Shown in pieces: positions 21,097 to 46,946 of a DNA stretch of 64,000 nt. A program made the translations under genes and the position numbers. Below the pieces are notes generated by a model, which saw only the letters and a list, made by a program, of their open reading frames with translations, ran no database searches and was not told the origin of the DNA. This stretch comes from Pyropia yezoensis (lineage: Eukaryota > Rhodophyta > Bangiophyceae > Bangiales > Bangiaceae): assembly GCA_009829735.1 (NCBI GenBank), contig CM020620.1:2111447-2175446 (forward strand), given 5' to 3'. Within the stretch, counting starts at the first letter, position 1, and the number at the start of each line of letters is the position of its first letter.

Positions 21097-23230
21097 ATGT
21101 TGGACCCCCAGGTACCCGGGGGCGAGGACGACCTCCTGCTTGAGGAGGAGGAAGAGGTGATGGTGGACGACGATCCCGTCTCTGCCACCGCCGCCTAGTG
21201 CTTCTTAGCGAGCTCGTCGGAGGACGAGGGCGACCGGGTGACCGTTCGCGTGGCTCCGGACGGTGCTCCGGGCGGTTTGTCGTCCGTGTGCAGCGGCACG
21301 ACGGCTCCGTCGGGTGGCGGGCAACCGCGGGTAGCTGCTGCGTCTACCCCTACTCCTCCGGCGGCCCGAATGGCTCCTTTCGCCGGTGCTGGCGCGGCTC
21401 AACCTCAAGACGGCGTTGCCGGCGTGTCGGGCGGTTATGGTGGCACCCCGACCGGGACGGCGGGTCAAGACGGCGCGGGTGCCCGCCCGGGTGGTTCATC
21501 CGCGGCTGCGGGTGACGGGTCTACTCCTGCTGCCCCCGAGGTGCCCGCGTCGGGCTCGGGTGGCGGCGTTGCTCTGCCCGCGGTGCCGCGGGCGTCTGGT
21601 GGTCAAGGTGGGTCTACACCGATGGCAGTTGACTCCGGTAGTTACTCCGGGTGGGCGCCCGCCCTTCTTCTCCCTCCTCGGCCCCGTGCACCTTCGGCAC
21701 CTGCTCATCTGCCGGTGGGGCATCCCCCGGCGCCCCCGATTCTTCCTGGTCCTGCCCGGGTTGCCCCGTTGGGTGGCGGCGTCGCCGTGGCGGCGGGTCA
21801 ACCCGCCATGTCGGTGTCCGACTTGGTGGCTCGGGTTCGAGGCCTGACTGTGCAAGAGTCAATGGAGTCCGCTGGGCGGATGCGGGTGGACTTCCACCAG
21901 CCGCTTCCCCGTGGAGAGTCCTCCCGGCGCGTTAAGGTGGACCCGAGTTGGGAGCGGGAGTTGGTGCGGCTGGTCAACCAGCCGAACGCGGTGCGAGTGG
22001 AGCACGAATGGGTCCTGAGTCAGCCGGACGACCGGCATGCGCAGCTCTGGCGCACCCGGGTGGGACGGGGTGAGGTCTACCTCGACCCCGCCTTCGGGGT
22101 ATGCGACCTGATTGCCCCCGCGTTGCCGCGGGAGGTTGACTACCCGGCTAGTGCTCGGGGGATTGCGGCGGCGGCGGAGCCGGTTGCGTTTGGGGAGACG
22201 GTGGGCGATACCGGTCGGTATCCCGACTTTGACTACTACCCGGGGGTATCCCCGTATCTGTCGTTGACGGCTCCCTACCCGCCTATGGCGGGGTTGAAGT
22301 CGGCGTGAGGTTACCCTCGGGCAGGCTTCCTCCTTCTTGCTGTCCGTCCGCCGGCAGGGGCGCCTGTTTCATCTTCCGACGGGTGTCCGTCGGCACATCG
22401 CGCAGTTGGGCGTGGACCTGATAGCTGCCAAGACCGGGTTGGCCCGGGAGTTCGAAGCCCTGCTGGCTGTTCACGATGCCGTGAACTGGGCTGGGGTGTT
22501 GGCCCTTCCCCCGTATCGGGACCCGCAGGCTGGGGCTACCCCCTTGCCTCGTCACTCGTTGCGTATCCGGCGTACTCAGCCGGGTGAGCCCAATTGCCAT
22601 GGGTGGGCGTCCACCGAGGCTGTTGCTGACCTGGGTATTCCCATGGTTATCCATGACCCTCTTCAGGTCCTTGCCCCGTGGTTCGGTAACCCGATACCGG
22701 CGGCGGTTGGCCGTCGTCCCCGAAACTGGGGCTCTGCGGGTGGGGAGCGTGAGGTGTCCCGTCGTCGGGCGGAGTCCCGCCGGGGTTACGGTGGAGCCCC
22801 TTCGGTAGGGTCCTGCCGAGCCTCGTATCAGGTGCCACCGGCTCCGGTGGTAGCCGTGTCGGCTCCTGTGGCTCCTCTGGCGGCGCCAGTGTCACCTCCC
22901 GCCCCTGTCCTACATGACGGGGGTCCCCGTCTCTGGTATGAGGGCGTTGACGCCCTTGTTGCCCGTGCAATGCGGGAGGGTCTCTCTGTTAGCTGGGGGG
23001 ATATCCCCCCAGGTGCTGCGCTAGTTGGGTCAGCGCGTCGCTTCGGTGGCGTGCTGGACCGCCTCCAGAAAGCTCTGGAGGACGTGGAGGCTGGCCGCAG
23101 CACCCTCGTCCAGCTATGCACCGAGGTAACTCGGGTGATTGACCGTCGTGACATCGCCGACCGGTGTAGCACGGAGGTACACGCGCTTACGCGTGAGTGG
23201 CCTCCCTCGGGCAGTGGGTCTACCCACTGA
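21097..23230 (+). pseudogene. Element A antisense ORF (aORF), broken
   Basis: Lies between pol and the 3' LTR, opposite in strand to gag-pol. An ATG in good context (CACCATG) at 21097 opens an acidic N-terminus (LLLEEEEEVMVDDD). The frame is interrupted by TAG at 21196 and shifts by one base between 22298 and 22308; otherwise it is open to TGA at 23230, 711 codons in all. After a Pro/Gly/Ser-rich region there is a folded-looking block: VDFHQPLPRG, then DYYPGVSPYLSLTAPYPP, then after the shift RRQGRLFHLPTGVRRHIAQL and GLAREFEALLAVHDAVNWAG. This order matches the aORFs of families B and C. A Pro-rich linker and a helical C-terminal region follow (WYEGVDALVARAMREGLSVS onward). Function unknown. 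Confidence 0.75.
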
Positions 23231-23411
23231 GGAGTGTTATTGTTTGTACGGGAGAGGGACCCGGTGGCCCTTATGGTGGCCGGGTAGTAGTGAGTATAAA
23301 CTCATCCCCTTTGGGGGCATTGCTTGCCTCTGTTTGCTGCCCTGGGGAGTACCCCTTCTGGCTCAGTGGTGCCTTGCCTCCCGTCCAACTTCTTCCGGTT
23401 GGTTCTTGCTT

Positions 23412-23464
23412 GGGGAGGTCATCCTCCCTTACTTTGTGTCTTGGCTTGGGGAGGTTATCCTCCC
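23412..23464. repeat. Repeated GGGGAGG-N4-CCTCCC hairpin, two copies
   Basis: GGGGAGGTCATCCTCCC and GGGGAGGTTATCCTCCC occur 36 bp apart between the aORF stop and the pol stop. They are candidate RNA hairpins at the convergent 3' ends. Confidence 0.7.
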
Positions 23465-23541
23465 TTGTAAGCTCCCTAGTTGCTTCGATATCATCGGAGT
23501 TAGCCTTTGCCTTTAAGTTAACTTATTAAGGCTCAGGATTT

Positions 23542-23637
23542 ACTTAGTTACCTAAGCTTGGCTCTACTTATTTACCTAAGCTTGGTTCGACTTAGAAACC
23601 TATGTCTGATTTGACTTAGATACCTAAGTCTGCCGTA
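23542..23637. repeat. 24-bp tandem repeat, four copies, each with a TTAGGTAA-type palindrome
   Basis: Four head-to-tail 24-bp units starting ACTTAG (or ACTTAT) and containing a near-palindrome CTTAG-NTACC-TAAG. It is AT-rich compared with the rest of the element and lies between the stops of two convergent ORFs. Confidence 0.85.
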
Positions 23638-23708
23638 ACCATGTGACACCCTACTTAGTAGGTATAAGCCTCACCCCCCAACAGCCGAAGTCGGTGTCGG
23701 TTGGGTTG

Positions 23709-26700
23709 TTACAGTAGGCGTCGTCGCCTCATGTAAGGCATCAGGAGTTGGCGGGGTATGTTTGCCGCCTGTTCCGAGGTGGGTGAGTCGTATCCGACCC
23801 ACATAACCTTGACGTACCAGGGTCCTGGTAGGTCCGGGTCGGTGTGTCCGACCACGCTCTCTACTTGGTATGGAATCCCATCCGGTCCCACCGGATCATC
23901 TGACCGGTGGGTTGTAAGAGCTTCATGTAGCAACCCGGCCGGTACCGGCTGAGGCTGTTCCGGCTTCGGAGCAGGTGTCACATCATTGATGTTGATGCGT
24001 TGTATCTCCGTATCGGAGAGCAGCATGACAGAGTGATCATCTCTGTGTGAGATCTGGTACGGTCCCTTGACCGGTTGCATAAGCTTGTTCCCTCGGAACT
24101 TCTGGTGTCTGATATAGACCCTGTCACCTGTTACCAGGGTTGCGTTGCGCACCCGTAGCCGGGCGTCGAAGTTCTTCTTGTATCGAAGTTGTGCTCTGTC
24201 AAGGGCACCCTTGAGCTTAGGAATCATCCACGATAGCTTGGCCAACCAAGCTAGGTGGATACGTTCGGCCGGTCGGCCTTTCGGTGTATCATACCGAGTG
24301 CACCTGCCTGGTGGCAGCGTCAGGTTACCGACGCCTAGTGGCATGACCCACTCCAGCGGAGCGATGTTCGTGCTCCGATGAGGCCTGGCATTGTATGCCA
24401 GGGTAAGTACGGACAGAAGCCTGTCCCAAGTGTTTGTGTGCTCGGCCACGTAGCATTGTAGCATCTTGACGATGGTGCGGTTGAACCGCTCCACCTGCCC
24501 GTTGGTTTGCGGGTGGTAGTCGGATGCCCGACGTGGTTCGATGCCGAACATGCCCAGGACCTTAGTGCAGAATGCTGACGTAAGGTTTGCTCCGTTGTCG
24601 GAGAGTAGTTGCTTCATGACTCCGTATGCACTGATCCAGTGGTCAACCACTGCGTTCATAATCGTGTATGCCGTATCATTCGGGATGGCTGCCGCTCGTG
24701 ACAGCTTGGTGAAGCGGTCAGACATGACCAGGATGTACCTGTTTCCTTCTTCCGCTACCGGAAGTGGCCCGAGTATGTCGATAGCGACTTGCTCGTTGGG
24801 CCCATCGGGTGGGAATAGTTTCATGGCAGATGCCTGCCTATGTAGCCTCATGCGGTTACGTGCACAGGTGTGGCATCCCCTTACGTGGTCGACCACGTCG
24901 ACGGCCATTGCTGGCCAGTAGAAGAACCTTCGCATTGCTGCGAACATACGTGAACCCCCCGGGTGTCCGGCTGTAGGGTTCTCGTGTTCTCGTTCCATGA
25001 CGGCTTGCCGTAAGGACACGGGAACCACGACTTGATGTCGTCCATCGGCGGGTGCCCGCCGGTATATGAGTCCGTCTTCGTTCTCGGAGAAGATGCCGGC
25101 CGTACCGGCCAGGAGGTTAGCACGATGGCGTTTACAGTCATCGTCATTGGCCTGTGCCTCGCGGAAGTCCGCGAGGGTCAATGGGCACGCAAGGTGTGCC
25201 ATGGTATGGTCAACCATACCCTGGGTAGCATTACCCACCATGCACACCGGTACCACCGGGATGTCCTCGTCCACAGGGCGGGTATCCCCGCTCGGGGTGT
25301 CGAGGCGAGACAATGCGTCTCCGAGATGGTGGGTTGACCCAGCCTTATACACGGTACGGTAGTCGTGCTCGGCCATCTTCAGCCTCCATCGGGCTAGCCT
25401 CCCATGGCTATCGGAATCCTTGTCACCAAGGTTGAGGAGCCATCGTAGGGGTTCGTGGTCGGACCTCACGATGAACCTGGAGCCCTCCAGGTATGGACGG
25501 AGCAGTTGCACTGCCCATATAACTCCGAGGCATTCACGCTCGGTGGCACTATAGTTACGCTCAGCCGGGTTGAGTGTCCGGCTGAAGTACCCTACCGGAC
25601 GTAGGTCCGGGATAACGTTATCGGAACCGATCAACGTCTCCCCCTGTAACAGGGTGCATCCCACTTGTGTATCGCATGCATCGACATCGATGACGAAGGT
25701 CCCCCGTCTGTGCGGTAACGCAAGGACGGGTGGGGATAGTAGGGCTCGCTTCAGCGACTCGAATGCCTCCTCTTCGCTAGGCGAAGGGGGTTGGAGTACC
25801 TTGGGAAAGGTACTGCTCGTAAGAACCGTTAACGGTTTGGCTATCCGAGCGAAGTCCTTGACGAACCGTCGGTATACGTTGCACATTCCCAGAAAGCTCT
25901 TGAGCTGTGTCTGGGTGTTAGGGAACCGGGCATCCCGGAGTGCCCGGGTATTGGCTTCGAGTACCCCTAGTTTACCAGGGGTTATCTGGTGACCCAGATA
26001 CTCGACCGTCTGTTGGAAGAAGGCGCACTTCTTCAGACGCAAGGCTACCCCGGCGTCCCTCAAGAGGGTGAGTACCTCGTCAACATGTTGCACATGGTCA
26101 TCCATGTTCCGCGAGAAGACGATGACGTCATCGAGGTACACTAGGCAGTTACGCCACTTCACCCCGGACAGTATAATGTCGATAGCCCGCTGGACTGTAG
26201 CGGGGGCGTTGGACAATCCGAAGGGCATCCTTAGGAACTCGTACACTCCACTGTGACAGACGAATGCCGTCTTGGGGATATCCTCGTCCGCCACCGGGAT
26301 CTGCCAGTATCCGGCATTGCAGTCGATGGTGGTAAGCACCGTAGCTTCCCCCAGGGAGTCGATGCATTCATCCATCCTTGGTAAAGGGTATGAGTCTTTC
26401 TTGGTAACCAAGTTGAGGCGTCGGTAATCGATGCAAAACCGAGGGGTTTGATCCTTCTTCGGTACGATAACGACTGGGGCACCCCACTCCGACATCGAAG
26501 GTCGGATCACCTTAGCTTCACTCATCCTCTTCACTTCTCCATCAACGATCTCTCCTTGCATAGGTCCCGCTCGGTGCGGTTGTGACCGGGCGGGGCGTGC
26601 GCCTGGTACCAGGTCAATACGATGATGGGTTGCCCCAATGGTACCCAAGGCCCCGCCTGTCCACATGACGTCATGCTTTCTTAGCATTCGTCGTACCCCT

Positions 26701-27875
26701 TCGGCTACCGAAGGGGGAAGGTGGTCGAGGTCAGCCTCGGCCAGGGACTTCAGTGCTTCTTGGTCCTTTGGCGGCATGTCCGCCGGAGCCTCCGATGGGT
26801 TAGGCTTCCCGTCATCGGGTTGCTGTCGCTCGGTGGGCTCGGCGACCGCCAGCACCTCAAGTGGTTCCACTTGACCTTCCTTGTCAGGGGTAAGGATATC
26901 TCCTTCGTAGAGCTCGGCAATCCCGAGGATAGATCCCTTCGGGAGGGTGACTGCCTTACGGCGATAGTTCGCCATCACCAGGAGGGACGACCCTCCTGCT
27001 GGGAGGTCTATGAGACCGTTGGCCATGGTCAACCCATGGCGCTTGTACGTCCGCAGGTTGGACCGGACTCTGCAGATGCCTGCGAGGTCACAGTTAACCG
27101 GGAGGACTGTCTCCGACAACGGCTCAAAGCGAGTTCGCTTGGCCAACCGAAGTGTCTTCGGCTCGACACTTGCGTACACCTCAGCCACGTTAACGTGGCT
27201 CCCTTGTAGCGTCAGGTCCCTGACGATAGCCGTGTGTCCTCGCTTCGTTCCGTCGGCTTCTTGAAGCTCAACGGTCCTCCGGCCTGGCCGGATTGCATCC
27301 ACGTGAACGTTGATGAAGGTGCATCCCAGTATGCAGGGCACCGATAGGGTCTCACACACCAGGAAGTCGACTTCCGTGGTGAGTTCCCCGATGGTAACCC
27401 GCAGCGACATCGCTGCGGTCGTGCGAATGAGGCGACCATTCGCGTCCTTGATGGTGGGTCCCCGAGTCACTCTGACTCGCGGAAGCCACTTGTCCGGGAG
27501 GGTATCCTTCCGGATAAGGTTGGGTCCAGCCCCTGTATCCAGTACAGGGTAGTACGATCGTGTCGACTGGGGGTCAACCCCCAGTGTGGCTGATACCTTG
27601 AAGTTCTCCAAGGTGAACAGTACGTGGCCTACACCGATATCCGGTGTAGCTCGGGCATCCTGAACAGGGCCCTTGGCTGGTTCAACGTGACGGGGCATCC
27701 CGTCCTCTCCTCCCAACCATGGAGGTTGGTCATCAATCCCCTGACGCCGTGTCGTCGGGGCCGGAAGGTGTACCCGGGGGTTGATGCGGCGTCGGCTCAA
27801 CCGCGCTCTCCGTGGGGCTTTCCCCGCGGTACTCCGGGGTGGCTTGCATGGGTTACCCCAGCGCCCCCCGGTCAT
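23709..27875 (-). CDS. pol: Element A Pol polyprotein (PR-RT-RH-INT-chromodomain)
   Basis: 1388 residues, uninterrupted. Domains in order: aspartic protease with DTGA at 113-116 and an ILG motif near 182; reverse transcriptase containing DYRRLNLVTKKDSYPLPRMD, FLRMPFGLSNAPATVQRAI and the catalytic YLDD at 580-583; RNase H beginning near VIDVDACDTQVGCTLLQ; integrase zinc module with His-His-Cys-Cys (AGHPGGSRMF to GCHTCARNR); integrase core with AIDILGPLP, LSDNGAN and QVERFNRT giving D-D-E; and a C-terminal chromodomain-like segment (WYVKVMWVGYDSPTSEQAAN). Domain order marks Ty3/Gypsy. The start ATG overlaps the gag stop as ATGA, so pol is probably made by termination-reinitiation rather than frameshifting. 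Confidence 0.95.
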   Translation of the reverse strand: MTGGRWGNPCKPPRSTAGKAPRRARLSRRRINPRVHLPAPTTRRQGIDDQPPWLGGEDGMPRHVEPAKGPVQDARATPDIGVGHVLFTLENFKVSATLGVDPQSTRSYYPVLDTGAGPNLIRKDTLPDKWLPRVRVTRGPTIKDANGRLIRTTAAMSLRVTIGELTTEVDFLVCETLSVPCILGCTFINVHVDAIRPGRRTVELQEADGTKRGHTAIVRDLTLQGSHVNVAEVYASVEPKTLRLAKRTRFEPLSETVLPVNCDLAGICRVRSNLRTYKRHGLTMANGLIDLPAGGSSLLVMANYRRKAVTLPKGSILGIAELYEGDILTPDKEGQVEPLEVLAVAEPTERQQPDDGKPNPSEAPADMPPKDQEALKSLAEADLDHLPPSVAEGVRRMLRKHDVMWTGGALGTIGATHHRIDLVPGARPARSQPHRAGPMQGEIVDGEVKRMSEAKVIRPSMSEWGAPVVIVPKKDQTPRFCIDYRRLNLVTKKDSYPLPRMDECIDSLGEATVLTTIDCNAGYWQIPVADEDIPKTAFVCHSGVYEFLRMPFGLSNAPATVQRAIDIILSGVKWRNCLVYLDDVIVFSRNMDDHVQHVDEVLTLLRDAGVALRLKKCAFFQQTVEYLGHQITPGKLGVLEANTRALRDARFPNTQTQLKSFLGMCNVYRRFVKDFARIAKPLTVLTSSTFPKVLQPPSPSEEEAFESLKRALLSPPVLALPHRRGTFVIDVDACDTQVGCTLLQGETLIGSDNVIPDLRPVGYFSRTLNPAERNYSATERECLGVIWAVQLLRPYLEGSRFIVRSDHEPLRWLLNLGDKDSDSHGRLARWRLKMAEHDYRTVYKAGSTHHLGDALSRLDTPSGDTRPVDEDIPVVPVCMVGNATQGMVDHTMAHLACPLTLADFREAQANDDDCKRHRANLLAGTAGIFSENEDGLIYRRAPADGRHQVVVPVSLRQAVMEREHENPTAGHPGGSRMFAAMRRFFYWPAMAVDVVDHVRGCHTCARNRMRLHRQASAMKLFPPDGPNEQVAIDILGPLPVAEEGNRYILVMSDRFTKLSRAAAIPNDTAYTIMNAVVDHWISAYGVMKQLLSDNGANLTSAFCTKVLGMFGIEPRRASDYHPQTNGQVERFNRTIVKMLQCYVAEHTNTWDRLLSVLTLAYNARPHRSTNIAPLEWVMPLGVGNLTLPPGRCTRYDTPKGRPAERIHLAWLAKLSWMIPKLKGALDRAQLRYKKNFDARLRVRNATLVTGDRVYIRHQKFRGNKLMQPVKGPYQISHRDDHSVMLLSDTEIQRININDVTPAPKPEQPQPVPAGLLHEALTTHRSDDPVGPDGIPYQVESVVGHTDPDLPGPWYVKVMWVGYDSPTSEQAANIPRQLLMPYMRRRRLL

Positions 27876-30067
27876 CCTTCCTCTTGCTCGTTTCCCGCCC
27901 TTGGTAGGGTGCTGTCCGCCTGGACATCCGGCTGAGGAGGTGCCTCCTCGACGGCCAGTACTCCACCTGGAGCTGGCTGCCTACCCGGGGCGGGTCCGGG
28001 TGCTCTGGCGGGATACCCCCCGGTGGATGCCTTGCGTTGCGCCGCTGCCCGCCGAGACTCCTCGGGGATGAGTGGGCAGGAAGACACGCAGTGCTGGGGA
28101 TCCCCACACAACATACATCCGGACGTGCCGGTCCCCCCTTGAGTTCGCATCGGGGTAGCCCCGTAGCTACGGTTGCCTCCCTCGGGCGCCCGAGTGCCTG
28201 CTCCCTGGTAGGCCTTGGGTCTTTGGGTCAACCGGAACATGGACTCCCCCAACCGGTTGGGTCGGCCCGCAATCTGCGGGGGTGCCTCCGTGCGCACCGC
28301 CCATGTTGGCAAGGGTTGGTGAGGGTTACCCGTCACCGGGGAGAACCCCGTAGTCCGTACGTACGGGACGCGACGTCCCGTGCCCTCGCTGACCTGGAAC
28401 TGGGTCCCCGCCGGAGCAATGTACGCTACCGTACCGTGCTCATCAATCACCGGCGTCGCCGGTAGCAACAGGTGGCCCTGTTGGTCAACTAGAGGTTCAT
28501 CCTCGACCGTAGGGGTATGTTCGGTCGCCACCAGTACTGGTGCGGCCTTACGTTCCACCTTCTCTTGCCTCGGTACCGGGGTAAGACTGGGCTTGCCTCC
28601 CTCACCCTTGGGCTTCGGGGCCAAGGTACATTCCGGGTGTAGCACCCGGTAGGCGTCCCCTAGGGACTTGCACATGTGCATCAGTCGACTGAAGCTCGTC
28701 CGGGCCGTATTGGCTCCCCGAGCGGATATCCGCACGTAGTTGGGTACTCCTGCGAACAGGATGGCCCGTAGCTCCCCTTCTCCGAGGAGCTTCCCCAGCT
28801 CGTAGTCGAGCTCTTGGATCCGGCGTCCAAGCATCTCTTCATCCTCCCAGCTCTGGGCGGTGGCAGTGCGCAGGGCCCGGTAGTGGTCCTCGCACTTGTC
28901 CTCGCTGAGGTAACTGCTCAGCAGCTCCTTGAGAATCCCACGGTAATCCATGGGGGTGGCCGCGACCCTCATTCCCGGCATCGGGGATGCCTGGCGAAGA
29001 ATGCCTCGCACCCGATCATCAACAAAGAACGGGAGGATCTCCAGGGCCAGCCCCTCGTTGACGAGGGCCTTGTCCGCGGCTGCCTTGAAACTAGTCAAGA
29101 AGCCGATGACTGCCAACGGGTGTCCGTTCGGCCCCCCGAACATAGGGACTCCCTTCATAAGGGTCTGCATAGAGCGGATCGCTCGGTGCGACGTATTACG
29201 CATCGATTCCGATACGGTGGTAGATCGGTCTTCCAAACGATAACGTTCGGGAGTCAGTACCGACCTGAAGACTTCGTTCACGATCTCCGTGTCAGCGTCC
29301 AGGATATCCAGTCGCTTAGCCAGTTGATGAGCAAACTCATCGGACTCCATCCGCTTCAGTAGGCTCGCAGTGACCTGCGCGGTCATAGCTTCCACCACTG
29401 AAGATGGTACTTCAGGCGTCGGCACCTCGGGAACCCGAGTTGCCTGGCCTCCTTCGTCGTGGGGATACTGTGAGAGGGTACCCCCTCCGCCAATAACCGA
29501 CTCTCCACCGGCGTAAGTATCCGCCGGGTCGTGTCCGCGGAGTCCGCTTCGGGTGCTCCGAGCGTATCGCTCCGTGTGGCTCCGTTCCAACTCTGCCGAC
29601 GAGTCGGATCCATACCCCATTGTGTCCGGGGGTTGTCCAGGAGTAGCAACACCGGGGTTGACCCTGGTGGACTCCAAAAGTAGTCCGGCCGGTTCGAACC
29701 GTACTGGTGTGGGAGGAACACGACGGGGTCCCGTCGTGTGGCGTGTTGACATCAACACTGCCATCGCGTCCTCCGTCCGCTCCTGGCGAGCGTCGAGTCC
29801 GGAAAACCGGGCCTCGATGCGGGCAAATGATGCCATCAGGGAATCCCCTGGTGAAGGAGGCGGCGGAGTGAGGTCGGTCGACGACAGTTGAGGCGGGCCC
29901 CCGCCTCCTGCCGTCCGAGCCGTGCCAAACGTCGATCCGGCACCGGAAAGCATTGGTGTCTCAATGTTGTCGATCGGGTTCCCGATCCCGGTTCCCGTGG
30001 TCACCTCCGGGGTCGGCGTCGACGCCGATCCGTCATCTTGAACGTTCCCCGTCTCTTGGGTAGACAT
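27872..30067 (-). CDS. gag: Element A Gag
   Basis: 731 residues from the ATG at 30067-30065 (MSTQETGNV). The frame extends two codons upstream without an ATG. The middle third is helical and capsid-like (FGGPNGHPLAVIGFLTSFKA; LSSYLSEDKCEDHYRALRTA). Near residue 650 there is a single CCHC zinc knuckle, CMLCGDPQHCVSSC, the nucleocapsid RNA-binding motif. Pro-rich linkers flank the knuckle. The stop codon TGA shares two bases with the pol ATG. Intact, consistent with a functional particle protein. Confidence 0.92.
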   Translation of the reverse strand: MSTQETGNVQDDGSASTPTPEVTTGTGIGNPIDNIETPMLSGAGSTFGTARTAGGGGPPQLSSTDLTPPPPSPGDSLMASFARIEARFSGLDARQERTEDAMAVLMSTRHTTGPRRVPPTPVRFEPAGLLLESTRVNPGVATPGQPPDTMGYGSDSSAELERSHTERYARSTRSGLRGHDPADTYAGGESVIGGGGTLSQYPHDEGGQATRVPEVPTPEVPSSVVEAMTAQVTASLLKRMESDEFAHQLAKRLDILDADTEIVNEVFRSVLTPERYRLEDRSTTVSESMRNTSHRAIRSMQTLMKGVPMFGGPNGHPLAVIGFLTSFKAAADKALVNEGLALEILPFFVDDRVRGILRQASPMPGMRVAATPMDYRGILKELLSSYLSEDKCEDHYRALRTATAQSWEDEEMLGRRIQELDYELGKLLGEGELRAILFAGVPNYVRISARGANTARTSFSRLMHMCKSLGDAYRVLHPECTLAPKPKGEGGKPSLTPVPRQEKVERKAAPVLVATEHTPTVEDEPLVDQQGHLLLPATPVIDEHGTVAYIAPAGTQFQVSEGTGRRVPYVRTTGFSPVTGNPHQPLPTWAVRTEAPPQIAGRPNRLGESMFRLTQRPKAYQGAGTRAPEGGNRSYGATPMRTQGGTGTSGCMLCGDPQHCVSSCPLIPEESRRAAAQRKASTGGYPARAPGPAPGRQPAPGGVLAVEEAPPQPDVQADSTLPRAGNEQEEG

Positions 30068-30273
30068 AGTCACAATCAGTCAACTGACGTATCAATCACC
30101 ACGAATAAGATAGCGGGGGGGGTAGATTGGGGAGAGTAGCAGTAGATCACAGTCAAAGGTAAAAACTCAACACAATCGAACAGGTCGCAACACCACGAGT
30201 ACAAGAAAAGGACCGGATCCCTATCCGTGTGCCAGGGCCGAAGACGGCGTCACCATAAGGGTGACGGAAACCC

Positions 30274-30293: not shown

Positions 30294-30656
30294 TGTAGCA
30301 CAATAGGAATCCGTCGCACGTCCACTCTCAGGGAACACTCACCAAGGGGGATCGGCACCAACGTCACCGGGAGGCCAAGGTTGCTGTCCTTGGAGCGCAA
30401 GCCACGGGACCAAAATGGGGGCCCAAATGGGAGGGGTTTGTTGTTCTACCTCGGCCGGCGGTGGATTCGCCGCCGGCCCCCACGTTATAAACCCTCGGAG
30501 ACACTACTAACTACCCTCCACCCCAAGATGCAAGTCCCTCTGGTAATACGTAACTTATAGGTACCGTGACCAGTACGGACTATCAACTTGAAAGCCAAGG
30601 ATTAGAAGTAGCCCCCCTAATATTAGGGTCACAATACGGCCAACCATATTGCTACA
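30294..30656 (-). repeat. Element A 5' LTR
   Basis: 363 bp, partner of 20147-20509, followed by the duplicated target CCCGC. Confidence 0.95.
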
Positions 30657-34209: not shown

Positions 34210-34781
34210 TGTGGTATAAAACTCGATCCTCTCAGACACGTGTCAATATCCCTCGGGGGAAAGGGACAGGTAACGCAGAAAGGGGAACTACGAGAATGGT
34301 ATGCCTGTTGCCTCACGTGCCTGCTTGCAGGGCAAACAGATACGCACGGTAGTGCACACGGGGAAGAGGAAAGCAAACGCGCAGTTGTCTTTTTCCCTGA
34401 GGGCGCGGGCCGAGGGCGCCTCGCTGTCCCTCTTAACGTGCATCTGGGGGAACCTCGGCACGTTGGCCCGGTAGCCCCCCCATAACCCCGAGTGGCCCCG
34501 ACCCGAGTCTAACCTCGTCAGGTCGGGGGCCACTATCACTACTAATTCTATTCCCACTCACTAATCTCACACTCAAATTCTCTCAAATCAAGTCCCTCAC
34601 AAATATGCAAAAACACATCAGAAATCCCTCTCTCGCGTGTGGATAGCGTAGTCCACCGCATCCCAGTGCCGGGCACGGGCCACGGCCGCCAACCATCGCC
34701 ACACGGCGGGCGTGTTCTGGCACCTGGTGCCCTCTGGTTGCAGTCCCGGGTCGGCGCCAAGTCGGGGCCAGGGATGCTACA
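34210..34781 (-). repeat. Family C LTR (3')
   Basis: 572 bp; reads TGTGGTATAAAA at its left end and ...GGGATGCTACA at its right end. Other copies are at 58619 (truncated) and, inverted, at 63745. The left end carries TATAAAAC on the plus strand (34214-34221). Confidence 0.88.
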
Positions 34782-34964: not shown

Positions 34965-37082
34965 ATGTCCAGTTCCGAGATCCAAGCTGGGCCCGTGGTT
35001 CCGGCGGCGAGTATTGCGGAGGAGAGCTCGGGTCGTCGTGCCCCTCTCCTGCCTCCGGTTCCTCGGATGTCGGTGCCGGCGCCGGTCGCCACGGCGGGGA
35101 CGGATCGAGTTCCCCCGGCTTCCGCGATGCACCCGGTCGAGGCCCCCCCGGAGGGTCTCCCGGAGATGCTTCTTGGGCAGGACCCTCTGGCGGCCCGGCG
35201 TTACTCCACGGTGGTCGGCAACGCCGGGGCGGCCCAGTGCCAGCAGGATTGCATGGACCTCTGGCGCAAGGAACTCCAGCGCGGGGTCTTGACCGAGATG
35301 GACAAGGCACGTCTTCATACGGCGGACCAGATGCGCCTGGCACAAGACCGCTCCCAGAGCTTCTCGGGTTCCTCTTGGGTTGCTCGTCTGGAGGATCTCC
35401 CCTTCGCGCTGGTACTGGATCTACCCTTGACCGAGCGTCGCGTGTCCGCGTCCGTTCTCCGGTGGCCGGAGGAGGAAGGGTACGTCCACCGGGCGCTCAA
35501 GGTCTGGGACGAGGCGCTCAAGGGGTCGGGAAGCTTGAACTGCGACCCCCGTCCGAGCATGGTCGCTCTGGAGCCGCCTTTCTTGACCCGGAAATACTCC
35601 AAGTTGTCGCCGGCACGGGAGCAGGGTGAGCGACGCGGGCGTCAGCGTGACTTCCTTGTAAGCTGCAACCACCAGGAGTTCTGGAAGCTGGACAAGGCTA
35701 ACCGGGCGGCATACTACCCCAAGGTCATCCCGCAGCAGCAGGAAGTCGAGATCCCGGTCGGGTTTGCTCCTTCCAGCATCCCTTGCACCTGGTACTTCTT
35801 GGACGCCTTGACTCAGGCGTCAATCAAGGGCTTCTTCCACTCAATCCCGTACATGATGTACACGTCCGAGATGACAGTCTTGGCGGCCAACCACTGGCTT
35901 CATGAGGTCTTGGTGTCCAACCGGCTTTGGTTTCTCCCTGACCTCCTGATGGTCTGGATTGTCGACAAGTTGACCGTCGACTTCCTGTGCAGCCAGGACG
36001 AGGAGTACAAGGAGCTCTTCCAGGCGATGATCGACTTCCGGTGTCTGGTGCCGGTGCATGACCGGAACTTCTTGAACGCGATTGCCGACCAGAACCGCCC
36101 GCGTCGGGATGGCTTCGGTTGGGCGCAGGTGGTCTACCAGTCTTCTCCGGCCAAGGTGCAGCTGGCGACGCCGCTTCCGGCGTGGCCGCAGCTAGGTAGC
36201 TTTCCTGCTCCGGCCGCCCTTGATCTTCTGCCAGTTGGGCCGCCGGTGCAGGAGTCGGGATGGGCCGCGGCGGTCGGTCGGGCGTCTGCGGCGGCTCCGC
36301 TTCCTCCGGTTGCCCCTGTCGCCCCGGTCGCCTCGCCTGAACCGTCACCGGCACGTCCGCGCCCTGTTCCGGCTGTGCCAGTACTTCAAGCTCCTCCGGC
36401 ACCGCGCTTGTCTGCGGCGAGTCTGGGAGTGGCCGTGCGGTCGCCGATTACTCCGGCCGCTCTACCCCGGACGCCTTCTTCCAACGCCGGCGGCGCTGTG
36501 CCTCCGCTGGAGTTGGGCACTCCGGTCTCGGGGGCCGTTGTGGACCGTCCGGTAGTGTCATCCTCGGGCCGGTTCGAGATTCCGGCGCCGACTCTGCGCC
36601 TTACCCGCTTCCGGGTGCCTGACTGGTACCTGAACCAAGGTGGTCCAACATGCGACCAGTACGACGTCGGCATGATTGAAGACCAGCTGGGTCGTCTTCC
36701 GGTGCAGGTTGAAGGCGTCGGGTCCTCTCTGGTGCTGGGTACTTACGCCAGCGTCTTGAACGACGTGGTCGACCGGGTGTTTGCTTGCGCGGACAGCGGT
36801 CAGATGTCGAACAACCCGGTGGTTGGCGAACTTCTGGCGACTTTGACGCGGCATGGCTTGGCCCAGCAGTGGTCAGAGACCTTCACGGGCTTCCAGCGGC
36901 GCCGACGGACATATCTGGATGAGCGGGAGCCACCGGCAACTACTGGTACTACTCCGATGGCGTCATACCGGGATGCGCCGCGTCCACCGCACTACGTCAT
37001 CCCGTCTTCCTCCGGTTCCCGTCGTACCGCGGAGGCAACGCCGGAGGACACTCCCGCGGCTCAGCGTCCGCGCCGGGAGTAG
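34965..37082 (+). CDS. Element C antisense ORF (aORF), intact
   Basis: 705 residues from a true ATG at 34965, on the strand opposite to pol; its stop is about 145 bp from the pol stop. The N-terminal 60 residues are Ser/Pro-rich. Residues about 95-380 look folded and helical: DCMDLWRKELQRG, RDFLVSCNHQEFWKLDKANR, YYPKVIPQQQEVEIPVGF (about 250-267), AANHWLHEVLVSNRLWFLPD and EEYKELFQAMIDFRCLVP. A Pro/Ala-rich linker (about 400-530) leads to a second conserved region (VPDWYLNQGGPTCDQYDVGM, then SLVLGTYASVLNDVVDRVFA). There is no signal peptide, membrane span or zinc knuckle, so it is neither an obvious envelope nor a second Gag. Homologous in order and motif to the aORFs in families A and B. Function unknown. 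Confidence 0.85.
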   Translation: MSSSEIQAGPVVPAASIAEESSGRRAPLLPPVPRMSVPAPVATAGTDRVPPASAMHPVEAPPEGLPEMLLGQDPLAARRYSTVVGNAGAAQCQQDCMDLWRKELQRGVLTEMDKARLHTADQMRLAQDRSQSFSGSSWVARLEDLPFALVLDLPLTERRVSASVLRWPEEEGYVHRALKVWDEALKGSGSLNCDPRPSMVALEPPFLTRKYSKLSPAREQGERRGRQRDFLVSCNHQEFWKLDKANRAAYYPKVIPQQQEVEIPVGFAPSSIPCTWYFLDALTQASIKGFFHSIPYMMYTSEMTVLAANHWLHEVLVSNRLWFLPDLLMVWIVDKLTVDFLCSQDEEYKELFQAMIDFRCLVPVHDRNFLNAIADQNRPRRDGFGWAQVVYQSSPAKVQLATPLPAWPQLGSFPAPAALDLLPVGPPVQESGWAAAVGRASAAAPLPPVAPVAPVASPEPSPARPRPVPAVPVLQAPPAPRLSAASLGVAVRSPITPAALPRTPSSNAGGAVPPLELGTPVSGAVVDRPVVSSSGRFEIPAPTLRLTRFRVPDWYLNQGGPTCDQYDVGMIEDQLGRLPVQVEGVGSSLVLGTYASVLNDVVDRVFACADSGQMSNNPVVGELLATLTRHGLAQQWSETFTGFQRRRRTYLDEREPPATTGTTPMASYRDAPRPPHYVIPSSSGSRRTAEATPEDTPAAQRPRRE

Positions 37083-39761: not shown

Positions 39762-40261
39762 NNNNNNNNNNNNNNNNNNNNNNNNNNNNNNNNNNNNNNN
39801 NNNNNNNNNNNNNNNNNNNNNNNNNNNNNNNNNNNNNNNNNNNNNNNNNNNNNNNNNNNNNNNNNNNNNNNNNNNNNNNNNNNNNNNNNNNNNNNNNNNN
39901 NNNNNNNNNNNNNNNNNNNNNNNNNNNNNNNNNNNNNNNNNNNNNNNNNNNNNNNNNNNNNNNNNNNNNNNNNNNNNNNNNNNNNNNNNNNNNNNNNNNN
40001 NNNNNNNNNNNNNNNNNNNNNNNNNNNNNNNNNNNNNNNNNNNNNNNNNNNNNNNNNNNNNNNNNNNNNNNNNNNNNNNNNNNNNNNNNNNNNNNNNNNN
40101 NNNNNNNNNNNNNNNNNNNNNNNNNNNNNNNNNNNNNNNNNNNNNNNNNNNNNNNNNNNNNNNNNNNNNNNNNNNNNNNNNNNNNNNNNNNNNNNNNNNN
40201 NNNNNNNNNNNNNNNNNNNNNNNNNNNNNNNNNNNNNNNNNNNNNNNNNNNNNNNNNNNNN
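39762..40261. other. Assembly gap (500 N)
   Basis: Exactly 500 N, a conventional placeholder length, so the true distance is unknown. It hides the 5' half of element C, the rest of the split family B LTR and the start of the first family B unit. Confidence 0.98.
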
Positions 40262-40459
40262 CTCTCCTCAAGCTTGCCCACTCGGCAGCTTGCTCTCCTC
40301 AGTTCACTTCACCATCACCACCACCTCCCCTTCACCTTCCACTGGGCCGCCCCACGCTGGGGAGGCCACCCGTATACCCACGATCCGAGTCCCCCTCAAC
40401 TCGAGGCGGGTCTCGTGCCGCGATAGCCAGAGCGTCTCTCCCCAACTTGGGGAGAAGCC

Positions 40460-42401
40460 ATGGCGACCCCGGGGAGTGAGACAGACTCTCTAGATGAGCG
40501 TATGGAGGACACCAGCTACGGTGCAGCACCGCCGGGACTTCCGGCGGGGCTCCGCGATCGCTCCGGGGGATGGGACTCCCGCGTCACCCGGCTTTGGGTT
40601 GACGGCGGGGTCTCCCCCGGAGGCGGGACTAGTTGTCCCGCGTGAGGCCTTGGGGCGGTGGTTTTACCCCGCTTGGCCTCTCTATGAGGAGGGGTTGACT
40701 GTTCTTCGCTGTGGCCGACTTGGCGCAGCGATGGGTCGGGTATGGGACCGCCTACGGGAGAAGTGTCCCCGTAGGGTCGGGTTCCCTGCCGGCTTCAGGA
40801 CGGACCAGTTTGCCTTCCTGGACGATGAGGAGGTTGAGGACGTTCAGCGTGCCAAGGCCATGGTGGACCGCGGGGGAACTATCCCGGGTCCCGGCGACTT
40901 GCCGACCTTCACGTGGGACGCTGTGGCAACTCGCCCACCGTACCTCCACGAGGCCGATCCACACACTCATCACTTTGATGTGGCGGATGGAGAAAGACTT
41001 CCGGCGAGGTCCCTACTTGGTGACCTCGGCTCAACTTGAGTTTCCTCAACAGTCTGCTGCCAGTAAGGAGCAGTACTATCCGAAGAAGCCCGAGTGGTGG
41101 CCTCAAAGTTGAGGTCCCCTACGGGTTCCCGGCGTTGTTGCCACGGTTGCTTGACCACTTCGGCTCCGTCATGTTGACGGCTGCCCCTGATCACCTGGTG
41201 TGGGCCATGTTGGCCACTCAGTGGCTCCTCGAGGTCATGTCGACCTGGGTGTCCTGTGTTCAGCGGCGGGGATGCTCTGGCATCTCCCCCTCCGGCTCCT
41301 CCAAGGTTTGGAACAGCTCACCCCTCAGCTAGTTGCTGAGGGGTGCTCATCAGGACAACTCACTCTACTTGAGGAGATGCTCCGGCTCCATAAGTTTATC
41401 GAGTGGGAGAGCATTGAGCACAAGTTGCGCCGCCCCACTCGTGGGCCCAAGGACGATGGCGCACTTCGCCAGTTCGTGTGGGTCGCTCGTGAACTTCACG
41501 ACGGCCGTGTGGTCCTACGAGAGAGGTTGGGCATCGGGACTACCCGTATGCCCCGGGGGTGGATCGCCACACTGCGCCACCCCCGGACAAGCCCATAGTT
41601 ATGGCCGTGCCGTCCTATGATGACCATATGACTCAACCCACTGCGGGGGCCCCAAGTCGGGGTCGCAGTTACACCCGGGTACCGCCACCTCGGTGGGCCC
41701 CTCCGCTTCCTCCTGTTCCTTTCCAACCTCACGGGAACATCCCGATCAGCGTGGCCGTGGAGTCTTCCACCCCGGTGTCCCCCAACTTGGGGGCCACCCT
41801 CCTGACGGTATACCCCAAGTTGGTGTTGCCGCCCACGCCTCTAACCTCAGAGATGATGATCACCACGTTGGTGCGCACCATTTCCTGGTTGGCCGCGTCG
41901 ACCGCAACCCTACAGAGTTCCGAGACTCCTCAACTTGAGAAACGCGTTCGTACTGCAGTGGCGACCGCGAGTTGCGAGTCGGTGGCGGAGTTTATGACAG
42001 CCGAGTTGGCTCGCATTGGGGCTATTATGCCCCAGCCAGCCCCACTTGGGCGTGGCAAACGTCGCGCGAGCCGGGCATACTCGCCTCCTCGCCGTCGTCG
42101 CCGACACTCGCGGCGCTCTCCTTCCGTATCGGAAGACGAGTTGTCTTACTCCGTTTCGGAGTCCTCTACCCCGTCGGAGACGGAGTCAGTCCAGCGTCTG
42201 CGTCGCAAACTTGCGCGCAAGACCAGGCAGAAGAGTGGCCACGGTCTGCGCCACTTGCGCGACCGTGAGGGGCGCGACGGTTCCGACTTGGAGCCGCCGC
42301 CCCTTCCAACGATTGGAGACCGTTATCGGCGTTGGTCTCGCCGCTCGCCTCCACGTGAGGGCGAGGGCCGTGGAGTGGGAGAGTCTAGCATGCGTGCCTA
42401 G
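40460..42401 (+). pseudogene. Family B aORF, unit 1 copy (indels)
   Basis: The same protein as in unit 2 but broken by several small indels between 40455 and 41560 (for example an extra G before the DVRMEKDF region and an extra A in the QVEVPYGF codons). It has two bases near 41573 that unit 2 lacks, so here the downstream half (from about 41559) connects in frame to the upstream reading. It ends with an Arg/Ser-rich region (RRRRRHSRRSPSVSEDEL) at 42401. Confidence 0.65.
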
Positions 42402-42544
42402 TTGGCAGCTGCCTTTGTTGTGAGAGTGTGAGGGTTAGGGCTGTAGTTAAAAGCCACTCTGCGTACCACTTCGACTTGAAGCACTCTCTTGGCACTGTTG
42501 CTCGGCCTTCCCTCACGTTGAGGGAGGGCTGTTCGGGTCTATCT

Positions 42545-43510
42545 CATTCCGGGCACAGTACGCCCGGACCTTCTCAGCGGGAAGGTCCTCCACATACTCC
42601 CACGTATCATCCTTGGCTTTTTAGCCAAACCAACGCACCCTCAACATGAGGCGGTCAGTGTCTTCATCCCATCCGTGGTCGATGAACTTATCGAACACGT
42701 ACTCCTGCGGGCCCTGTTTGGCCGCAGGCAGTGAGGGGAGGCGCCACGCTTCCAAAGCACGCGCCCAAGCTGGGTCGTCTGCAGGCGGTGGTGCAACTTT
42801 GACCACGTCCTGTTCGTTCACTGTGCGGACCCCATCATCACTTTCGATGGTGAAGCGCCGCCCATCAATACGAAGGACCTGGTACGGCCCCTTCGTCTGG
42901 AGTACCAACTTACCCCAAGTTGGGGTGTGTGAGTGAACCAGCACCCAGTCACCCTGCTCGGGGATATGCTTAGCATTGCGCACCTTTTTGTCAAAGGTAC
43001 GCTTGTAGCGCTTCTGTGCTTTATCCATCTCAGCCCTGACTTTTGGGATGAGGTTTTCAAGCCTAGCAGCGAACTCCGCCTTACTCTCAGTAGGAGTAGG
43101 CGTACTGCCACCACCCTCCCTAGTTGGGAGCGGCCGCCGCACGGCAATAGACCGCACGCGACGGGGGGTCACAAAAGCGAGGGGTACTTCCCCGGTAGAT
43201 GAGTGAACCTGCGAATTGTAGGCAGTAGTAAGGATAGAAATGTATTGATCCCACGTTTTCACATGCTCACTCACATAGTGGCGCAGCTGCCGAACAATAG
43301 TTTTGTTGAAGCGCTCCTTAACGAAATCCCTTGAACGGGGCCCTCCCTATACGGTTGTTGGCGTAAAGGGGGTACACCGGGTTTCAACTCGATCCGGTGT
43401 TGGGTGGCTCTCATGAGTCCCAACTGACCATCCCACAACTTGTGATATTGGTCCAAGAGGCGTTCAACTTGAACCCTCAACCTGGGTGGAACACCCTCCA
43501 TGTTCACATG
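42545..43510 (-). pseudogene. Family B pol remnant, unit 1
   Basis: Contains the pre-RT segment (TQHRIELKPGVPPLRQQPYR), joined with a frameshift to the end of integrase (LRHYVSEHVKTWDQYISILT) and a chromodomain interrupted by TAA at RVRWFG. Most of RT, RNase H and the integrase core are missing. Confidence 0.7.
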
Positions 43511-44197
43511 GGGACGAGGAGAGGCGGCCGACTTGGCTTGATGCTTCTCCTTTCCGGACTTCGGGTCGCTACTCGCGCCCGCGTTGAGGGTGACCGCTAC
43601 TACCGGTCCCTCATGTTGGTCGATATAGCCGAACTTGGCTCCCGGTCAAAGATGCTTTCTTTGAGGGTGGCGGGGGTAGCAACTTGCTACGACCCCTGTC
43701 ACAGGCTCGAGCCCATCACCGACGAGTGAAGGTCCGCCGTCCTCCACCCGCCTAGTTGGCGACGGCTCTATGCCGAAGTTGAATCCAACCCGAGTGGATC
43801 TCGCGGGGACAGTCCTCTCACCTTGGGACGTTCCTTTTGAGTGTACCACCCGGTGGCCGAAGTGCGAACCACCGGTCCGAGGAAGACCCTCAGGGTAAAC
43901 ACCCGACGGGGTCGGGGTGGCATACCGCCCGCACCGATACCCACGGCCCTGCTGGCTGGAGTGCCTCTAGCACCTCCGCGACCCCAGGTACACCCTGTGT
44001 CTGGCCAGTATTCAAAAGCGCCGGAGTAAAGTCGTCACCGGAGAGTTTCCCGAACGTCGGGAGGTCCGATCCAGCCGTGTTGGCTAACGATCCACACGAC
44101 ACAGTCCAAGACCACCATTCCTCTGAGACAGAGGGCCCCCTACGCCCGGCTGCACCCGGAGGTAAAGTTTACCTCTGTCCCCTGCTGCTCCACCAAA

Positions 44198-44666
44198 TGT
44201 GGCAAAAACCACTAGCACACACGGCACCCAAGTTGGGGCGGTGTGCTAGGGCTGCCTCCCGTGTCGGGGGAACCGGAAGAAGTGCAAGTCGCACACACTC
44301 TGTCCCTGTTGTGGGGCAAACCCCCCACGGACAAACAAGAGGATGGTGTGTGGTCCAACAGTTTCTTGGTCGGGACGGGGACGCAGGGCCAAGCCCCGCT
44401 GTCCCTCCCCTTATCCCCCCAGGGTCCACTCAGAATCTCGCCACTCAGAATCTCCCACCCCAGCACCTGCCCACCGGGCCACACGAAAATTCAAGACGAT
44501 AAATGCAGAAAACCCTCAAATCCAAGTTGGATTTACCACTAAGCTAACTATCCCAAACTTAGGGAATATGGACCCAAATGCAGGGGGAGGAACGGATCAG
44601 GCTAGTGGCCTGCCGCCCCTTGCATGGCACGTGTTGCCCCCCTACCTGGGGGTCAATACTGCCACA
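44198..44666 (-). repeat. Family B LTR (middle, shared by both units)
   Basis: 469 bp. It acts as the 3' LTR of unit 2 and sits just outside the primer site of unit 1. Confidence 0.93.
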
Positions 44667-45004
44667 CTCCCCTCTCCTCAGTTCCGACCGACCCGGTCGG
44701 CCCTGTGAGGGGGTGCGTAAACGCACGTCTCGGCGTTGGGGGCGCGACTTGCTGTCCCCCATGGAGTACGTAACACGGATGTGGAGGCGGTCACGTTGAC
44801 CGCCCCTCTCCTCAAGCTTGCCCACTCGGCAGCTTGCTCTCCTCAGTTCACACTTCACCATCACCACCACCTCCCCTTCACCTTCCACTGGGCCGCCCCA
44901 CGCTGGGGAGGCCACCCGTATACCCACGATCCGAGTCCCCCTCAACTCGAGGCGGGTCTCGTGCCGCGATAGCCAGAGCGTCTCTCCCCAACTTGGGGAG
45001 AGCC

Positions 45005-46946
45005 ATGGCGACCCCGGGAGTGGAGACAGACTCTCTAGATGAGCGTATGGAGGACACCAGCTACGGTGCAGCACCCGCCGGGACTTCCGGCGGGGGCTCC
45101 GCGATCGCTCCGGGGGATGGGACTCCCGCGTCACCCGGCTTTGGGTTGACGGCGGGGTCTCCCCCGGAGGCGGGACTAGTTGTCCCGCGTGAGGCCTTGG
45201 GGCGGTGGTTTTACCCCGCTTGGCCTCTCTATGAGGAGGGGTTGACTGTTCTTCGCTGTGGCCGACTTGGCGCAGCGATGGGTCGGGTATGGGACCGCCT
45301 ACGGGAGAAGTGTCCCCGTAGGGTCGGGTTCCCTGCCGGCTTCAGGACGGACCAGTTTGCCTTCCTGGACGATGAGGAGGTTGAGGACGTTCAGCGTGCC
45401 AAGGCCATGGTGGACCGCGGGGGAACTATCCCGGGTCCCGGCGACTTGCCGACCTTCACGTGGGACGCTGTGGCAACTCGCCCACCGTACCTCCACGAGG
45501 CCGATCCACACACTCATCACTTTGATGTGCGGATGGAGAAAGACTTCCGGCGAGGTCCCTACTTGGTGACCTCGGCTCAACTTGAGTTTCCTCAACAGTC
45601 TGCTGCCAGTAAGGAGCAGTACTATCCGAAGAAGCCCGAGTGGTGGCCTCAAGTTGAGGTCCCCTACGGGTTCCCGGCGTTGTTGCCACGGTTGCTTGAC
45701 CACTTCGGCTCCGTCATGTTGACGGCTGCCCCTGATCACCTGGTGTGGGCCATGTTGGCCACTCAGTGGCTCCTCGAGGTCATGTCGACCTGGGTGTCCT
45801 GTGTTCAGCGGCGGGGGATGCTCTGGCATCTCCCCCTCCGGCTCCTCCAAGGTTTGGAACAGCTCACCCCTCAGCTAGTTGCTGAGGGGTGCTCATCAGG
45901 ACAACTCACTCTACTTGAGGAGATGCTCCGGCTCCATAAGTTTATCGAGTGGGAGAGCATTGAGCACAAGTTGCGCCGCCCCACTCGTGGGCCCAAGGAC
46001 GATGGCGCACTTCGCCAGTTCGTGTGGGTCGCTCGTGAACTTCACGACGGCCGTGTGGTCCTACGAGAGAGGTTGGGCATCGGGGACTACCCGTATGCCC
46101 CGGGGGTGGATCGCCACAGCGCCACCCCCGGACAAGCCCATAGTTATGGCCGTGCCGTCCTATGATGACCATATGACTCAACCCACTGCGGGGGCCCCAA
46201 GTCGGGGTCGCAGTTACACCCGGGTACCGCCACCTCGGTGGGCCCCTCCGCTTCCTCCTGTTCCTTTCCAACCTCACGGGAACATCCCGATCAGCGTGGC
46301 CGTGGAGTCTTCCACCCCGGTGTCCCCCAACTTGGGGGCCACCCTCCTGACGGTATACCCCAAGTTGGTGTTGCCGCCCACGCCTCTAACCTCAGAGATG
46401 ATGATCACCACGTTGGTGCGCACCATTTCCTGGTTGGCCGCGTCGACCGCAACCCTACAGAGTTCCGAGACTCCTCAACTTGAGAAACGCGTTCGTACTG
46501 CAGTGGCGACCGCGAGTTGCGAGTCGGTGGCGGAGTTTATGACAGCCGAGTTGGCTCGCATTGGGGCTATTATGCCCCAGCCAGCCCCACTTGGGCGTGG
46601 CAAACGTCGCGCGAGCCGGGCATACTCGCCTCCTCGCCGTCGTCGCCGACACTCGCGGCGCTCTCCTTCCGTATCGGAAGACGAGTTGTCTTACTCCGTT
46701 TCGGAGTCCTCTACCCCGTCGGAGACGGAGTCAGTCCAGCGTCTGCGTCGCAAACTTGCGCGCAAGACCAGGCAGAAGAGTGGCCACGGTCTGCGCCACT
46801 TGCGCGACCGTGAGGGGCGCGACGGTTCCGACTTGGAGCCGCCGCCCCTTCCAACGATTGGAGACCGTTATCGGCGTTGGTCTCGCCGCTCGCCTCCACG
46901 TGAGGGCGAGGGCCGTGGAGTGGGAGAGTCTAGCATGCGTGCCTAG
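45005..46946 (+). pseudogene. Family B antisense ORF (aORF), unit 2, one 2-base deletion
   Basis: ATG at 45005 in a strong context (AGAGCCATGG). Open to about 46117, where two bases present in unit 1 are missing; the remainder is open in the next frame to 46946. The unbroken reading would be about 647 codons. Conserved block: RGPYLVTSAQLEFPQQ, EQYYPKKPEWWPQVEVPYGF (about 204-223), TQWLLEVMSTW, RRGMLWHLPLRLLQGLEQLT, TLLEEMLRLHKFIEWESIEH. After a Pro-rich linker comes a helical segment and a strongly basic, Arg/Ser-rich tail (RRRRRHSRRSPSVSE; KLARKTRQKSGHGLRHLRDR), as in nuclear RNA-binding proteins. Matches the family C aORF in block order. Function unknown. Confidence 0.75.

What the first reader, a model, noticed from the sequence alone, without database searches (positions are those of the whole stretch)
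21097..46946. A conserved antisense ORF family inside three Ty3/Gypsy families
In elements A, B and C a long ORF lies between pol and the 3' LTR on the strand opposite to gag-pol: 21097-23230 (711 codons), 45005-46946 (about 647) and 34965-37082 (705). By eye the proteins share one order of blocks. A YYP motif leads into a (V/A)P(Y/V) turn: EQYYPKKPEWWPQVEVPYGF in B, YYPKVIPQQQEVEIPVGF in C, DYYPGVSPYLSLTAPYPP in A. A helix ending in (M/R)LWHLP, LWFLP or RLFHLP follows, then a helical LLxxxxxVxW-like segment, a Pro-rich linker and a helical C-terminus. Nothing resembles Gag, Env, RNase H or a known accessory protein. Antisense ORFs are known in some plant Gypsy lineages, but a shared, ancient protein at this position in several algal families looks undescribed.
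Basis: partly seen in the sequence, partly recalled or inferred. Interest (0 to 1): 0.9.

Follow-up and report, generated by a model that had tools for sequence, protein, structure and literature searches.

The report
Antisense accessory gene of seaweed retrotransposons
Several distantly related virus-like jumping elements in a nori seaweed genome carry, on their opposite strand, the same family of protein-coding gene, which selection has kept working but whose job is unknown.

Summary
The core observation holds, with corrections. In Pyropia yezoensis (host inferred from scaffold sizes), Ty3/Gypsy families A, B and C carry a protein-coding gene between pol and the 3' LTR, antisense to gag-pol. 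Only C is intact in the window (705 codons). The window copies of A and B are broken; open copies elsewhere have 789 and 647 codons.
The proteins are homologous: A-B 3e-10 and B-C 8e-8 by BLASTP, 0/100 shuffles each. I found two more families, D (C-D 1e-13) and E (linked only through B, 3e-6).
dN/dS is 0.18-0.32 for C against five open relatives (up to 0.49 among those), 0.12 for one B pair and 0.35 pooled in A. C pol gives 0.15-0.17.
Against a strict need in cis: a D subfamily, with pol frames open in three of seven copies, has lost most of the ORF and still multiplied.
No convincing Pfam or PDB match, no TRP28 match, no membrane segment. Structure prediction never ran. Antisense accessory ORFs are known in plant Grande/RIRE2/Retand and fungal Boty elements, so this is a new protein family within a known kind. 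Best guess: a trans-acting nuclear regulator.

The parts
20147..20509 (-). 3' LTR of element A (element reads on the - strand); TATAAA on the antisense (+) strand at 20339
   Evidence: 98.3% identical to 30294-30656, TG...CA ends, TSD CCCGC on both sides, PPT beside it
21097..22308 (+). element A antisense ORF, first part (one in-frame TAG at 21196)
22307..23230 (+). element A antisense ORF, second part, different frame, after loss of about 80 codons relative to P0007
23709..27875 (-). element A pol, 1388 aa, open (RT, RNase H, integrase)
27872..30073 (-). element A gag-like ORF, 733 aa
   Evidence: named from its position upstream of pol and a CxxC...C stretch seen by eye; no Pfam match
30294..30656 (-). 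5' LTR of element A; PBS TGGTGGAGCAGCAGGGG adjoining
34210..34686 (-). LTR block of element C, directly after a piece of B LTR (34020-34209); TATAAAA on the antisense strand at 34215
   Evidence: 95.6% to 58619-59097; exact LTR end not fixed
34965..37082 (+). element C antisense ORF, open, 705 codons
37228..39756 (-). element C pol, cut by the N gap 39762-40261; chromodomain-like C-terminus
   Evidence: Chromo 21.4 bits, below the 25.1 cut-off
40460..42401 (+). antisense ORF of the first B copy (broken)
45005..46946 (+). antisense ORF of the second B copy, in two frames in this copy; open copies elsewhere 647 codons
47166..47969 (-). B pol remnant, internally deleted
59096..60013 (+). second C-type copy: C-terminal 305 codons of the antisense ORF, 79% identical to C
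   Evidence: dN/dS 0.232 against C

Best explanation
It is a real protein-coding accessory gene, antisense to gag-pol and convergent with pol, in at least five Ty3/Gypsy families of Pyropia yezoensis. The protein has a variable N-terminal part, a conserved core of about 160 residues (helical by eye; no structure was predicted), a Pro/Ala-rich linker and a C-terminal region, Arg-rich in B and E. Shown: shared ancestry of the cores (A, B, C, D; E through B alone) and selection on the protein. Inferred: it is expressed from an antisense promoter in or beside the 3' LTR, and acts in trans in the nucleus on the element's own transcription, RNA or chromatin, as has been proposed for Grande GENE23 and Retand TRP28 proteins. 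Subjective odds: coding and selected 0.97; single family A-D 0.95; E a member 0.8; trans-acting nuclear regulator 0.4.
For: Homology: A-B 2.8e-10, B-C 8e-8, B-D1 2.7e-12, C-D1 1.2e-13, B-E 3.3e-6, each 0/100 shuffles. Core profile scores: AB 39.4, AD 44.5, BD 45.5, CD 68.0, BE 31.1, against a highest shuffled score of 23.3 over those five pairs (40 shuffles each). Selection: C versus its second copy 0.232 (bootstrap 0.165-0.333), 0 gaps in 915 nt, substitutions 39/35/105 by codon position; pol of the same pair 0.17 and 0.152. C versus five full-length relatives 0.176-0.316, upper limits at most 0.405. A pooled 0.347 over 21 pairs of 7 copies; B 0.116 on one pair; D1-D2 0.305. In 11 of 11 ORFs checked only the antisense frame is free of stops. 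Scored copies without stops: C 63/63, B 74/76, A 86/91, second-C query 112/129. No 19-residue window reaches a hydropathy of 1.6 in the six proteins tested. TATAAA lies on the antisense strand only, in the A and C LTRs. A D subfamily without the gene still multiplies, as expected if the protein works in trans.
Against: No expression, localisation or structural evidence; structure prediction answered 'busy' 17 times. The subfamily that lost the gene can equally mean that it is dispensable. A-C, A-E, C-E, D-E and A-D1 are weak or not significant by BLASTP. B-C rests on BLASTP and single-sequence hhalign; its family-profile score, 25.2, is below its highest shuffle, 27.4. C-terminal regions are alignable only for C-D (0/40 shuffles reach the score) and doubtfully A-C (5/40). 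No TATA match in B. Residues 1-90 of C show dN/dS 0.65-1.9, so the true start may lie downstream. The copies compared were picked for open frames, so the lack of frame-changing indels is partly by construction, and the copy lists are ranked by score and capped. Pol and aORF distances do not correlate (rho 0.28, 160/720 permutations).
Confidence: 0.5

Rival explanations
1. The protein is a component or cofactor of the particle or pre-integration complex (nuclear import, integration targeting), made from a separate antisense message.
For: Selection nearly as strong as on pol in the one pair where both were measured; Arg-rich C-terminal parts in B and E.
Against: No similarity to Gag or Pol of element A; a D subfamily with open pol frames in three of seven copies lacks it.
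Confidence: 0.2
2. The protein counters host silencing (small RNA or chromatin) of the elements.
For: Trans-acting behaviour suggested by gene loss in an amplifying subfamily; faster-evolving ends around a constrained core.
Against: No direct evidence; no known domain found.
Confidence: 0.2
3. Only the antisense RNA matters (dsRNA or transcriptional interference); the ORF is a by-product.
For: Antisense transcription alone is discussed as a regulator of some elements (PMC7264820, passages).
Against: Codon-position pattern and dN/dS in three families.
Confidence: 0.03
4. The ORFs are chance open frames of GC-rich DNA or mirrors of a sense-strand gene.
For: The A run length is reached by 2 of 300 shuffles; the mirror frame on the other strand of the C pair also gives 0.254.
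Against: That mirror frame has 4-23 stops in each of the 11 copies checked while the antisense frame has none, and no sense frame is open; significant homology between families.
Confidence: 0.01

Closest known systems
Antisense aORFs of Retand elements (TRP28, PF04195) in flowering plants
   Same: Between pol and 3' LTR, antisense, in 97% of clusters, function unknown, DNA-binding and regulatory role proposed (PMC11963269, passages)
   Different: No PF04195 match in 15 proteins scanned to E = 10 nor in a genome search (no plant positive control seen). Retand is non-chromovirus; B, C and E here have chromodomain-like ends, all under the Pfam cut-off. From recall only, the spacing of the core motifs looks somewhat alike; not tested by profile
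GENE23 of maize Grande; aORF of rice RIRE2
   Same: Position and orientation; Grande has its own promoter and a nuclear product (PMC7264820, passages)
   Different: Sequences not compared here; host lineage differs
Boty antisense ORF of Botrytis/Sclerotinia
   Same: Antisense ORF in a fungal LTR element (named in PMC7264820, passages)
   Different: Sequence not compared here
HBZ of HTLV-1
   Same: Antisense gene with a nuclear product (mentioned in PMC11963269, passages)
   Different: No Pfam bZIP match here (that HBZ is a bZIP protein is recalled); HBZ not fetched

Membership tests
Ty3/Gypsy LTR retrotransposon (host element A) | LTRs with TG..CA, TSD, PBS, PPT | tested here: met
   LTR 363 bp, 98.3%, TSD CCCGC, PBS and PPT
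Ty3/Gypsy LTR retrotransposon (host element A) | pol order RT - RNase H - integrase | tested here: met
   Pfam order in A and C
Chromovirus | chromodomain at the end of integrase | tested here: inconclusive
   C 21.4, B 22.2, E 20.8 bits against a cut-off of 25.1; none in A; D not scanned
Antisense aORF class (aORF-3R) | ORF antisense between pol and 3' LTR | tested here: met
   A, B and C with LTR; D and E antisense beyond pol, LTR not mapped
Antisense aORF class (aORF-3R) | present in most copies, conserved like other element proteins | tested here: inconclusive
   Selection met; presence not universal: of 24 D integrase loci 14 show its 3' end, 7 have it replaced, 3 undetermined
Antisense aORF class (aORF-3R) | own antisense promoter, nuclear product (Grande) | not testable with these tools
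   Only TATAAA on the antisense strand in the A and C LTRs
Retand TRP28 | PF04195 domain | tested here: not met
Env-like aORF | transmembrane segment, sense orientation | tested here: not met
   antisense; highest 19-residue hydropathy 1.54 over six proteins

The most novel reading that the evidence does not exclude
The antisense gene is an ancestral third gene, acquired once before the deep split of these red algal Ty3/Gypsy families and shared in trans between elements. Subfamilies that lost it, or lost pol (B in the window), would live on products of their relatives, so the elements form a community around a common trans-acting, perhaps anti-silencing, factor.
Probability: 0.25. Interest if true: 0.8.

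Novelty: new variant of a known kind. Interest (0 to 1): 0.6.

Why it matters
Antisense accessory genes of LTR retrotransposons have unknown functions, and the plant cases I read of are in flowering plants. A separate, measurably selected protein family in a red alga with a small, chromosome-level genome gives an independent comparison set. The D family supplies sister lineages with and without the gene, which turns the question of what the gene does, in cis or in trans, into a comparison that can be made.

Tried and rejected
Viral contigs: four scans (C, B, A second part, A pol), no relative. Prokaryote genome contigs with D: none. Protein database: one close record (94-98% identical) per query for C, B and A, so distribution outside this species is unknown; how many algal proteins it holds is not known to me. 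PDB by sequence: C alone gave five weak matches (best 0.0048) on residues 474-555, in the Pro/Ala-rich linker; the profile none. PHROGs none at 0.01. Co-divergence of pol and aORF: inconclusive. C-terminal domain shared by all: not shown. Prokaryotic promoter scan: not informative for an alga. Rows dropped before counting dN/dS: L042 (no full-length C frame) and the partial loci L029-L036; for A, L020, L025 and L026 (no full frame from the usual start, or a stop); for B one pair of ten loci was used.
Full report
Host. The window is G000:C3:2111447-2175446 in a genome of 107.48 Mb with three large contigs of 43.6, 34.3 and 29.4 Mb. The published Pyropia yezoensis scaffolds are 43.6, 34.3 and 29.4 Mbp (PMC7423979, passages), so the host is taken to be this nori seaweed.

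Anatomy. Element A (20147-30656) is a complete Ty3/Gypsy element on the - strand: 363-bp LTRs, 98.3% identical, TSD CCCGC, PBS and PPT, a gag-like ORF of 733 aa and pol of 1388 aa. Element C starts directly after a piece of B LTR and is cut by a 500-N gap. B occurs as a 99.6% identical tandem whose pol has lost its middle. In all three a + strand ORF converges on pol, with 479, 220 and 146 bp between the ORF ends.

State of the ORFs. C is open over 705 codons. A and B are broken in the window. Copies elsewhere are open over 789 (A) and 647 (B) codons. Among the copies scored, which are the best of capped lists and so biased, those without stops are 63 of 63 for C, 74 of 76 for B, 86 of 91 for A, and 112 of 129 for the second C-type query.

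More families. The integrase search scored 150 of 3515 candidates; 24 of the 150 came as loci, and those 24 matched C pol at 46-58% over varying lengths; I call this group D. Downstream stretches were fetched for five of the 24 and for three other places of the list of 150. L067 holds an open D ORF (581 codons from a plausible Met; 663 stop-free). L068 holds 485 open codons of a second D type. L069 and L071 hold broken copies. L070 keeps only an N-terminal end of the D ORF, beside a nested B piece. L072 is a new family E with a 952-codon antisense ORF. L074 is a B copy whose ORF lacks residues 1-214. L073, a D copy, shows none. So some part of the gene is seen in 7 of 8 stretches, and it is open over the core in L067, L068 and L072.

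Homology. BLASTP of full proteins: A-B 2.8e-10, B-C 8e-8, B-D1 2.7e-12, B-D2 8e-11, C-D1 1.2e-13, C-D2 1.8e-12, B-E 3.3e-6. Weak or not significant: A-C 0.07, A-D1 0.006 (1 of 100 shuffles reaches it), A-D2 1.2, A-E 0.24, C-E 3, D1-E 11, D2-E 1.4. Profile comparison of cores is clear for AB, AD, BD, CD and BE. AC (22.5 against a highest shuffle of 22.1) and AE (22.9 against 20.8, out of register) are marginal; BC (25.2 against 27.4), CE and DE fail, though single B and C cores do match in hhalign (1.7e-5). The family is therefore a chain held together by B and D; E hangs on B alone. The core holds PP(Y/F)L, the YYP...VEVPYGF block, a long stretch that looks helical, LW(H/F)LP or its variants, and a nearly invariant His.

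Selection. C versus the second window copy: dN/dS 0.232 (0.165-0.333), 179 substitutions split 39/35/105, no gaps; pol 0.17 and 0.152. The mirror frame on the opposite strand also gives 0.254, because third positions coincide; it has stops in each of the 11 copies checked. Six C-type ORFs (the window's and five of the six fetched, picked for open frames) align without gaps over 705 codons. Whole-ORF values over their 15 pairs are 0.18-0.49. By region: residues 91-240 0.05-0.41, 241-400 0.09-0.83, 401-535 0.17-0.62, 536-640 0.11-0.32, tail 0.26-0.88; the first 90 residues, 0.65-1.9, show no constraint. A: 21 pairs of seven copies, pooled 0.347, middle part 0.05-0.28, no gaps in 789 codons. B 0.116 on one pair. 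D1-D2 0.305, synonymous sites near saturation and 102 gap positions.

Loss. Of the 24 D integrase loci, 14 show the 3' end of the ORF within the half kilobase or so available. Seven (L047, L050, L052, L053, L054, L057, L063) share with one another a different sequence there, 93-99% identical, and three (L044, L046, L061) are undetermined. L070, downstream of L052, and L073 match L067 on both sides but not where the core should be. Three of the seven (L052, L054, L063) have pol frames open over 1438-1442 codons; the others are shorter. So a lineage without the gene has multiplied: the gene is either dispensable there or supplied in trans. This is against a strict need in cis, and it is the main reason why I favour a trans-acting role.

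What it is not. No Pfam match for any of 15 members, apart from DUF6214 at 0.014 in one; none in PHROGs; no PDB profile match; not Gag or Pol of element A; no membrane-like segment. PF04195 was not found in the genome by a six-frame search; of its 14 control genomes only E. coli rang, under the cut-off, so I saw no positive control.

Literature. [quoted passage not shown] The passages seen of a brown algal survey mention a gene opposite the transposase of a Sola1 DNA transposon, and no such gene in a Gypsy element (PMC12477816). Nine searches listed no paper on such a gene in red algal Gypsy elements. The lists were capped at 3-20 rows and, apart from the four papers named in this report (passages only), I saw titles and abstract beginnings; subscription papers are mostly not held.

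Verdict. The gene and its conservation are real; the kind is known; the protein family, its host lineage and its loss in one amplifying subfamily appear new. The mechanism remains a guess.

Noticed in passing
L072:1-1509 (G000:C1:34414280-34415788): Family E pol (open frame 1673 codons) ends in a chromodomain-like part followed by a Dam-like DNA N6-adenine methyltransferase match (PF05869, 2.1e-7).
   Followed up: partly
L070:170-872, L073:1043-2099: In the D subfamily without the ORF the missing core is replaced by about 0.7-1 kb of other sequence; its start is shared among the copies at 80-99%. Origin unknown.
   Followed up: partly
L074:3613-4998: Beside the B copy lies a piece of an A-related antisense ORF only 64% identical to A: a further, divergent A subfamily.
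   Followed up: no
39762-49214: 500-N gap followed by two 99.6% identical B units of 4546-bp period: tandem LTR-internal-LTR-internal-LTR or an assembly artefact.
   Followed up: no
34020-34210: Element C begins directly where a B LTR breaks off (98% to 44198-44387): nested insertion.
   Followed up: no
52497-54296 (-): Transposase ORF matching PF04827 (4.9e-57) and PF13359; PIF/Harbinger-like by recall.
   Followed up: partly
34965-35234: First 90 codons of the C ORF show dN/dS near 1 and low synonymous divergence in many C-type pairs, and the start Met is not kept in all: possible 5' UTR, promoter or later start.
   Followed up: partly
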